Shown here in pieces: positions 49,601-52,600 of a stretch of 64,000 nt of DNA. Each line of letters begins with the position of its first letter. The stretch's first letter is position 1. This DNA is from Amphiura filiformis. Its lineage: Eukaryota; Echinodermata; Ophiuroidea; Amphilepidida; Amphiuridae. Made by a program: the position numbers and the translations under genes. Where the stretch lies: positions 36,666,548-36,730,547 of the forward strand of contig NC_092641.1 in the NCBI RefSeq assembly GCF_039555335.1, written 5' to 3'. The notes under the pieces are model-generated. The model did no database searches and was not told where the DNA came from. It saw only the letters and a program-made list of their open reading frames with translations.

Positions 49601-52600
49601 GTACCCAGTGGAACAGCGAAAGAGGGGTGGTTAGTCAGGACAATTATTTCATAGCTCTTCTAATAAACTGCCAGTGAATACATTATGCTGTATAATCATC
49701 CTACATTTAACCATTGCAACCAGTAAGAATCATTTCAATTAACTGATCAAAATACCAGCAACCTCCTCATCAACGTAGCAGAATGTGAGAACCAATATTG
49801 ATAGCGGCAAAGGCATGTTGTGGCAATCATTTGATTTTTGCTAAAACATATCACCTGAAAATACACTTACAAAGAAAAGTTGATTCCCATTTTTTTAATT
49901 GAATCTTTCTGAGACTTGATTTGAGATGAAATTCATGATTAAATTCAGTTTGATGCCAACATCATAGATACATGTAGTTTAATTTCAGAGAGTACAGCGA
50001 TTAAAAAAAAGAACCTAATTTCCCCTGCACCATAAGACATCCACACCAAGACTCCACACCAAGACAGTAAAACTACAAAGAAAATGGTACATAGCACCCC
50101 TACAACCTGCCAGATTCTTTGCACTGATTTAAAACAATTCAGAAGGACACAAAAGAGGGGGAGATGAACAATCTTGAGTAGAGTAAAAACCAAACTACAG
50201 AAAACCTTACTCACTCCAATTTAAGACCCAAGATGTGTTGAAGAAAGCAAACCATACCAGGATTCAAGGGCTACATGACTTCATATTAAGACCTGCTAAT
50301 AAGTAGGTGTTCGGTTCAAGGATCGACCCCAGTTTGAGACATATCTGAAGGCTCTGTATTCCCAAGGAACTACATCAGGGCTTCCCAAAGGGGTTGGAAT
50401 TATTTACTGCATCTTATTTTTGGATTGTACACACTACATGTAAAGGATCTTGGGAATAGCGGGAAATACATGTACATTCTATAATGTAGCAAATACATGT
50501 GACTACATTGGGAGTCCTATTGCATTTTGGTAGAAAATGTCACAATTGAAGGAATGTAGCACACCTCCACAATCCCATCAATATATATATCAAACCCTGT
50601 TTGCAGTGCATGATGAGTTAGTTGCAAAACTTAATTTCATGCTTAACATTCCTGATTGAGAAGTGCTGATGGCTAAGCAAACAAACAAATAAAATGTTGT
50701 TATAATTGCACATACCCATGTACCAAGGAAGACATTGCTCTTGGTATTGAATTCTTGTAGTTCACATAGCCTCTGCCATATGAAGCCAGGGCTACGACAA
50801 AACCTTTGACAGGCTGTTGAACGCATTCACAAAACTGAGGGTGAAAAACATTGAAAAACATAAACTGTTTGATGGATATATTGTGTATTCAATTAGTAAC
50901 ATACCCATGAAAGAATGAAGAGGCAACTCGCGATAATGGCCCTTCGTACTTGTGGTATCCTTCACCAAATGATGCTAACGCCACGGCGACTGTCTGCAAC
51001 GGCTGCCACATGCTATCACAAAACTGTATTGAGAATAAATGGTAAACACTATACTTTGCATTGTCAATACTGATATTGCAACTTAGTATTACCTTAGAGA
51101 ACTTCTTCACAATTCATAGAAATCAATCTCAGGATAGGTTGCTATTCCATTTGAATTTCAAATGGAGTTACCTGAATGGGTGGCTCCATTTGAAATCTAC
51201 ACCCTGTGTGTGGGAGATTAAGGTCATGTCTTCCATGGGGGGGGTATGGATGTCAACTGAAATAGCCCAATATACTATAAAAGTAATGTCATTTTTTATT
51301 TGACTAATTTGTCAAATTTATCACCTGAAAAACATAATTTAAAACATTCATATCATTACCAAAAATGTGATTTGAACAGGGACCAGGCTAAGGATGCCAT
51401 AAACTTTCCGGAGCTTACAGCTTCTTAGTATGTCAGTCCCCCGATGGTCTCTGATAACTTGAATAACTAGCATTAATCGTCAGTTTCAGTTAATCAACCT
51501 AGTGAACAAGGAATAGTGCTACATTCCCGATCCTAAATAAAGCTCTCAGGTGAGCAAATGTTACCCTTTGAGTGTTCTATCTTCTTCACCAAATATAAAT
51601 TTAGATTTGAAAGTGTTTTCTTGGCACTTTTTATAGCACAAACTCTATTCCAAGGAAGACACATGTTGGTGTGTTTTTATTTAACCTGCTAGTAATATGA
51701 GGTATAATGTGCACCGACTACATTATATACATGTACTTGCCTGAAAGCCTAGGCACCTGCCATAGAAACACTCTCTGTCCAATGCTTGTATTTCTAGCAT
51801 CATATCTTGAGGAATTTGTTCCAATGCTGTCATGTCAGGGAACAGTTGACCCAAATCTGAGAAACCCAGCAGTTTCTGAGCATAACATAACACCACTCGC
51901 AGCTGACTAAGAACCTGCAACAAAAATATCACACACTGAGCTAGAGATCACGAACAATAATGGGTGAAAAAGGTATTGAACTAGGTACATGTACTTAAAT
52001 TTATGGGCAGTTCCGTAGTTGCGGACATATATTTCAGATACTTTGAGGACCCAGAACTTCTAAATTATTGATGCTTTGGATTTTGAACAATTGCATTTAA
52101 AGTATCTCTGATAGAAGTATAAAACCTGAAAATTCACAGTTGGCATGACAGGTTACAAAAACACCCCCGTTGCAGACGTACATGTAGGAAGTGAACTTTT
52201 TCAGCTACTTGTGTTTTCAGTCACAATTGCTCTGTAGTGTACAGTTCTTTGATGGAAACTTATAGTTTTGTTTGCAAGAAGGACAAAGCTGAAGAAAACC
52301 GGCAAAGAAAAAAATCAGAGTCTTTATCTTTTGGTCAAAATTGATCAATGTTCTCAGTTGCCGACATACATTTTTTGCGTTGCGCTGTGAAATATTTCAA
52401 TAATTTGTATGTCCGCAACAATTTATGACATCACTTCTTTATACTGAACAGGGATGCAAAATCAAGACACCTCATGCAGAGAAAGTCAGTTATCAACTTT
52501 CAAAATTTGCGAAATTTATCAACCATGATGAGAATACATGTCAATGCCAATAAAAAGAAGAAAATTCTGAAAAAAAAACCTGGAAAAACCCGTTTTTTGG

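What the first reader, a model, noticed from the sequence alone, without database searches (positions are those of the whole stretch)
50716..51023. Tandem mutually exclusive exons in hormone-sensitive lipase
Exons 3a (50905-51023) and 3b (50716-50834) are both 119 nt, both preceded by good acceptors, both end CATGG|GTATGT and both are open in the same phase. They align without a gap but share only 17 of 39 residues, so both versions have been kept under coding constraint for a long time. Since 119 is not a multiple of three, including both breaks the frame. The intron between them is only 70 nt, with a TACTAAT motif 11 nt after the 3a donor, which would sterically prevent 3a-to-3b splicing. 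The segment (core VALAS[FY]G.GY) lies in the N-terminal domain, associated in vertebrate HSL with dimerisation and fatty-acid-binding-protein contact, so the switch could alter partner binding or regulation rather than catalysis. I know of no description of such a switch in HSL.
Basis: partly seen in the sequence, partly recalled or inferred. Interest (0 to 1): 0.9.

Follow-up and report, generated by a model that had tools for sequence, protein, structure and literature searches.

The report
Twin alternative exons in animal HSL
A fat-releasing enzyme gene of an unidentified animal carries two old, diverged copies of one exon of which a sound protein can use only one at a time, and they differ at the spot where the mammalian enzyme binds a fatty-acid carrier, so one gene may make two differently wired enzymes; no RNA evidence was available.

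Summary
A hormone-sensitive lipase gene (LIPE) lies on the minus strand, about 57972-25452. Exon 3 exists twice, 3a (51023-50905) and 3b (50834-50716): 119 nt each, no gap, same phase, 17/39 residues identical, 70 nt apart. Identity by codon position is 22/40, 31/40, 14/39: silent sites look near saturation while the protein is kept; 0 of 3000 neutral copies were open and as similar. Both copies together, or neither, give an early stop. Best reading: a mutually exclusive exon pair. New here: the upstream donor is GC, and the pair covers the FABP4-contact site mapped in mammals, residues 192-200 (PMC7240967): human GEHYKRNET, 3a GEGYHKYEG, 3b GRGYVNYKN, two acid-to-base changes. The steric argument is only partly supported: TACTAAT is a doubtful branch point, though any branch point in a 70-nt intron lies near the donor. 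No RNA data and no related LIPE sequence could be reached. Two one-base frame breaks lie in the catalytic half. A new member of a known kind, in a gene where my searches found no such pair.

The parts
57554..57972 (-). LIPE exon 1 (from ATG), donor AAG|GTGAGT
   Evidence: tblastn with recalled human HSL, E 9.9e-16
51741..51914 (-). LIPE exon 2; GC donor CAG|GCAAGT at 51740. The first AG (exon from 51914) breaks the frame with exon 1; the second AG (exon from 51906) keeps it
50905..51023 (-). Exon 3a, 119 nt, phase 0 in and 2 out, the human-like copy (17/39 identical to human)
50835..50904 (-). 70-nt intron between 3a and 3b. TACTAAT at 50898-50892; intermediate AG ending at 50865; TTTAT branch-like A at 50861
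   Evidence: sequence; positions counted by hand
50716..50834 (-). Exon 3b, 119 nt, the diverged copy (9/39 identical to human; 17/39 to 3a), acceptor scores above that of 3a
34676..34793 (-). Exon 4, joins either copy in frame ([10 protein letters not shown])
34511..34744 (-). Three tandem 78-nt copies (96% and 99% identical to the reference copy) of the end of exon 4, each with its own GTGAGT donor; the later donors add 26 or 52 residues in frame
   Evidence: (D2)
33107..33289 (-). Exon 5, end of HSL_N
31289..31435 (-). Exon 6, HGGG oxyanion motif
30523..30667 (-). Exon 7
30061..30301 (-). Exon 8, GDSAGG catalytic serine motif; conserved frame shifts by one base near 30228
26349..27119 (-). 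Exon 9, regulatory region (acidic and serine-rich by eye) and PIMKN..LPPVHI segment
25452..25684 (-). Exon 10, DPLLDD and PHGF motifs, stop; conserved frame shifts by one base near 25640

Best explanation
Exons 3a and 3b are an old tandem exon duplication in LIPE, spliced mutually exclusively. The exon 2 donor, a GC site, is joined either to the near 3a acceptor or to the far, probably stronger 3b acceptor. The 70-nt intron between the copies is poorly removable because any branch point in it lies within about 52 nt of the 3a donor. Mis-spliced RNAs that hold both copies or neither carry an early stop and would be destroyed. The two enzymes share the rest of the docking domain and the whole catalytic half, but differ in one predicted helix-turn segment that in mammals holds the FABP4 contact; 3b has base for acid at the positions of human Glu193 and Glu199. 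The likeliest effect is a change of partner binding, with 3a the ancestral-like form. Shown: sequence, phase, constraint over past time, stops. Inferred: use of 3b, exclusivity, nonsense-mediated decay, the partner effect.
For: Equal length, phase and splice-site layout. Codon-position identity 22/40, 31/40, 14/39, Fisher p 0.00026 for position 2 against 3. Neutral simulation: 0 of 3000 open and as similar in score, 6 of 3000 as identical with stops not counted against them. Hydrophobic pattern 3a-3b 36/39 and human-3b 32/39, the latter reached in 0 of 20000 permutations. The HSL_N profile gives exons 2-4 132.5 bits with 3b against 142.8 with 3a. 3a+3b stops after 111 codons of the exon 2-5 reading, skipping both after 73; either copy alone is open. 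Intron 70 nt against 221 nt or more for the others. FABP4 site 192-200 falls inside the exon (PMC7240967 section 16; alignment). GC donors are reported enriched in alternatively spliced genes (PMC2490688, start of abstract in the listing).
Against: No transcript seen. No other species compared: 4 collection scans and one plasmid search found no relative, and those collections are not of animals. The recalled human query did not list 3b, and 3b alone is below the HSL_N cut-off. The acceptor scores are weak evidence: the exon 4 acceptor scores lower still (27.7% of AGs as high). Introns of 60-70 nt are spliced readily in some animals (recalled), so the steric step is not assured. No competing RNA pairing found: for the three intron pairs 18, 5 and 38 of 60 shuffles were as strong. 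His194 is Gly in both copies. Two one-base frame breaks in exons 8 and 10 could mean a dying gene, though they may be assembly errors. Constraint could have ended recently: at 0.1 neutral substitutions per site 57% of simulated 3b copies still lack a stop, 17% if indels at an assumed rate are counted.
Confidence: 0.8

Rival explanations
1. Exon 3b is a relic of an exon duplication that was once used and is now silent.
For: No transcript evidence; 3b is the faster copy (9/39 to human against 17/39 for 3a); a recent loss would leave little trace.
Against: No stop, no length change against 3a, intact donor, an acceptor scoring above that of 3a, second codon positions 31/40 identical while third positions are 14/39.
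Confidence: 0.1
2. 3b acts as a poison exon: included after 3a to trigger decay and lower HSL output.
For: 3a+3b gives a stop about 14 codons into 3b.
Against: A poison exon needs no HSL-like residues, yet 3b keeps the hydrophobic pattern and an HSL_N match; the 70-nt intron is the shortest of the gene.
Confidence: 0.05
3. The gene as a whole is a decaying LIPE copy, so the exon pair has no present function.
For: One-base frame breaks in exons 8 and 10; the exon 1-2 join is in frame only with the second AG.
Against: Exon 7 and the two pieces of exon 8 are 75%, 80% and 50% identical to the recalled human protein, HSL_N scores 321.6 bits over nearly its whole length, there is no in-frame stop in the conserved frames of exons 8 and 10 before the true end, and exon lengths fit the phases if the two breaks are sequence errors.
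Confidence: 0.05

Closest known systems
OGDH exons 4a/4b (mutually exclusive, metabolic enzyme; PMC7969005, passages seen)
   Same: Homologous tandem exons in a metabolic enzyme; short intervening intron (118-131 nt in birds and mammals) with branch points 25-41 nt from the 4a donor; decay of mis-spliced RNA discussed as a backstop
   Different: Studied in vertebrates, and the switch is calcium sensing; here the gene is a lipase, the branch points are unmapped, and the suspected switch is partner binding
Drosophila cacophony duplicated exons (PMC9741552, passages seen)
   Same: 39-residue segment, 16/39 residues shared between copies, in a partner-binding region (Ca-beta)
   Different: Ion channel; both copies found in insects and crustaceans, whereas the species range is unknown here
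Mammalian LIPE alternative first exons B, A, T (PMC2887374, passages seen)
   Same: Same gene; described as mutually exclusive; A and T alter the N-terminal side of HSL
   Different: Upstream first exons, each with its own promoter; not a tandem duplicate of an internal exon

Membership tests
Mutually exclusive exon cluster (criteria of PMC5740500, passages seen) | Neighbouring internal exons of similar length, same reading frame, sequence similarity | tested here: met
   119 and 119 nt, same phase, 17/39
Mutually exclusive exon cluster (criteria of PMC5740500, passages seen) | Joint inclusion gives a frame shift, or is otherwise barred | tested here: met
   Both or neither gives a stop; a bar to splicing itself is only inferred
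Mutually exclusive exon cluster (criteria of PMC5740500, passages seen) | Junction reads from each copy bridging the other, none joining them except frame-shifting ones | not testable with these tools
   No RNA data held
Mutually exclusive exon cluster (criteria of PMC5740500, passages seen) | Donor to branch point under about 50 nt (one mechanism, not required) | tested here: inconclusive
   Candidates at +12 and +44 in a 70-nt intron (sequence); branch point unmapped
Competing RNA-pairing class of mutually exclusive exons | Docking and selector sequences pairing between introns | tested here: not met
   No pairing clearly beyond shuffles; only the first 800 nt of the 15922-nt downstream intron were tested
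Hormone-sensitive lipase (LIPE) | HSL_N domain plus catalytic domain with HGGG, GDSAGG, Asp and His motifs | tested here: met
   PF06350 321.6 bits; 8zvq human HSL E 6.7e-27; motifs in the alignments. Catalytic frame broken by one base in exons 8 and 10

The most novel reading that the evidence does not exclude
A splice switch in HSL itself: one copy carries the FABP-docking face, the other reverses its charge, so tissues of one animal choose at the RNA level whether lipolysis is coupled to a fatty-acid carrier and its feedback, a control for which my searches found no report in HSL.
Probability: 0.2. Interest if true: 0.7.

Novelty: new member of a known kind. Interest (0 to 1): 0.55.

Why it matters
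HSL is studied as a target of phosphorylation and partner binding. A natural exon swap centred on the mapped FABP4 contact would supply a matched enzyme pair that differs in that segment alone, and so a clean test of whether FABP docking activates or inhibits HSL, on which the review PMC7240967 (section 16) reports conflicting results. It would also add a lipolysis enzyme to the metabolic enzymes (OGDH in PMC7969005; KHK and ACOX1 in a figure legend of PMC9741552) with homologous alternative exons.

Tried and rejected
Further copies of exon 3: none in the window (tblastn of both copies at E up to 20; the other rows there are weak, best E 0.061, and were taken as chance). Competing RNA structure: not supported; a hairpin over the 3a donor (ATGGGTATGTT with AATATATCCAT) scores -9.9 kcal/mol against -7.6 with s.d. 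2.4 for 60 shuffles, so it is not significant. Relatives: 6 and 95 pattern stretches in viral contigs and 39 and 64 in genome contigs, none confirmed; these collections hold viral, bacterial and archaeal sequence, so absence says nothing about animals. Plasmid search: no match. Pleckstrin hits (E 0.12 and 0.15) taken as chance. A structure prediction of the spliced isoforms was not sent, because the tool states that it takes only proteins that the DNA gives letter for letter. A recent assembly duplication is rejected at 67/119 nt identity. Paper searches: (10 of 10). Judged by the titles and abstract starts listed, none was about an internal exon pair in HSL; lists were cut to 20 of 62, 12 of 15, 10 of 85, 10 of 15 and 6 of 66., meant to find a paper on the HSL structure, listed none that reports it.

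Full report
Gene. Splice sites were then set by eye and script, giving exons between 57972 and 25452. Translated exons 1-5 (with 3a, and exon 2 from the second AG) match Pfam HSL_N over profile positions 3-305 of 306 at 321.6 bits, and exons 2-4 match the solved human HSL 8zvq at E 6.7e-27. The species is not known; no genome is held for the window. Long introns and a reverse transcriptase fragment fit an animal.

The pair. Exons 3a (51023-50905) and 3b (50834-50716) are each 119 nt, align without a gap, are identical at 67 of 119 bases and 17 of 39 residues, share frame 0 and end CATGG|GTATGT. The six-frame scan of the window gives no third copy: the best score of 3a is 92, against 3b, then 33; of 3b 92, then 31. 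Identity by codon position is 22/40, 31/40 and 14/39, chi-square p 0.0009, Fisher p 0.00026 for positions 2 and 3. That is the mark of protein-level constraint with silent sites near saturation. When 3a was mutated without selection to the same nucleotide distance, 323 of 3000 copies stayed open and 0 of 3000 were both open and as similar in BLOSUM score as 3b; 6 of 3000 reached the identity, and the highest score among all copies, stops masked, was 95 against the observed 92. 3b keeps the hydrophobic pattern of human HSL at 32 of 39 positions, reached in 0 of 20000 permutations. Limits: constraint could have ended lately, and 3a alone being constrained explains part of the third-position excess.

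Age. Uncorrected identity is 17/39 for 3a-3b, 17/39 for 3a-human and 9/39 for 3b-human. So 3a is the conservative copy and 3b the faster one. The pair is old, but from three sequences I cannot say whether the duplication came before or after the split from vertebrates.

Splicing. Exon 2 ends CAG|GCAAGT: a GC-AG intron. The nearest GT sites do not keep the frame (read by eye, not scripted). With a rough matrix from recall, donors of 3a and 3b score alike (6.33; 3.5% of the 3596 minus-strand GTs score as high), while the acceptor of 3b (8.70; 1.4% of 3240 AGs) beats that of 3a (4.05; 15.7%); the exon 4 acceptor scores lower than either (2.48; 27.7%), so these scores separate poorly. The intron between the copies is 70 nt; the other introns of the gene are 221 to 15922 nt. 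If a branch point must lie some 18 nt or more from the acceptor (recalled rule), none can be further than about 52 nt from the 3a donor, near the roughly 50-nt threshold given in PMC7969005 and PMC5740500 (passages). So steric hindrance is plausible whichever A is used, but it is not shown; PMC5740500 counts it as possible in 57 (9%) of its human clusters. The intermediate AG, if used as an acceptor, would lengthen 3b by 10 residues in frame. Joining 3a to 3b gives a stop after 111 codons of the exon 2-5 reading, and skipping both a stop after 73; either copy alone reads through. I found no sign of competing RNA pairing.

What the swap changes. The review PMC7240967 (section 16 read) states that A-FABP contacts HSL at residues 192-200 and that His194 and Glu199 determine binding. 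Counting on the recalled human chain, whose numbering agrees with 8zvq, these residues fall inside exon 3: human GEHYKRNET, 3a GEGYHKYEG, 3b GRGYVNYKN. Glu193 and Glu199 are kept in 3a and are Arg and Lys in 3b; net charge of the nine residues is 0, -1 and +2. His194 is Gly in both copies, so the mammalian contact is not conserved as such, and whether HSL binds an FABP in this animal was not testable. The same review calls the N-terminal domain essential for dimerisation and a docking domain (passage), so a change in dimer contact is the alternative effect. The helix-turn form of the segment is my inference from the hydrophobic pattern.

Known or new. Tandem homologous exons used one at a time are well known, in metabolic enzymes too: OGDH (PMC7969005), with KHK and ACOX1 among the structures in a figure legend of PMC9741552. 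A close parallel is cacophony, where 16 of 39 residues are shared between copies in a partner-binding region (PMC9741552). In mammalian HSL the described mutually exclusive exons are first exons B, A and T (PMC2887374, passages). The searches 'hormone-sensitive lipase' with 'mutually exclusive exons', with 'exon duplication', and with 'alternative splicing', 'invertebrate' and 'exon' listed 1, 3 and 4 papers, none by title or abstract start on an internal exon pair in HSL; one search listed 10 of 85 with none on it. The library is open-licence only, and database isoform annotations could not be consulted.

Against. No transcripts; no relatives. The frame of the conserved protein shifts by one base in exon 8 (near 30228) and exon 10 (near 25640). 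Exon lengths around both fit a gene that is whole apart from these, which suggests sequence errors, but a damaged allele or decaying gene is possible. The exon 1 to 2 join also keeps frame only with the second of two AGs, the weaker one by score.

Verdict. Observation confirmed; mutually exclusive exon pair likely (0.8); FABP-docking switch possible (0.2).

Noticed in passing
34511-34744 (-): The end of LIPE exon 4 with its donor stands in three tandem 78-nt copies, 96-100% identical to the reference copy. As 78 is 26 codons and each copy has a GTGAGT donor, the later donors would add 26 or 52 residues in frame, repeating an HSL_N segment: a recent, possibly variable-number donor duplication.
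   Followed up: partly
51739-51740 (-): GC-AG donor (CAG|GCAAGT) just upstream of the twin exons.
   Followed up: partly
near 30228 and near 25640 (-): The conserved LIPE frame shifts by one base in exon 8 and in exon 10, with exon lengths otherwise fitting; assembly error or damaged allele.
   Followed up: partly
38103-38368 and 54258-54521: Two copies (pieces 91-96% identical, D3, D4, D8) of an element with TATTGTACGTACAATA-like palindromes, about 16150 bases apart, both within LIPE introns; looks like a short inverted-repeat transposon.
   Followed up: no
51152-51269, 45249-45311, 36047-36093, 31143-31189: Two short dispersed repeat families (D5 and D7, 66-83% identical to their reference copies) meet side by side in the intron before exon 3a; D5 holds CATTTGAAATTC-type ends.
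   Followed up: no
9946-10230 (+): Exon of a CAP-domain gene (PF00188, 38.1 bits).
   Followed up: no
53743-54036 (-): Reverse transcriptase fragment (PF00078, 49.1 bits) in LIPE intron 1.
   Followed up: no
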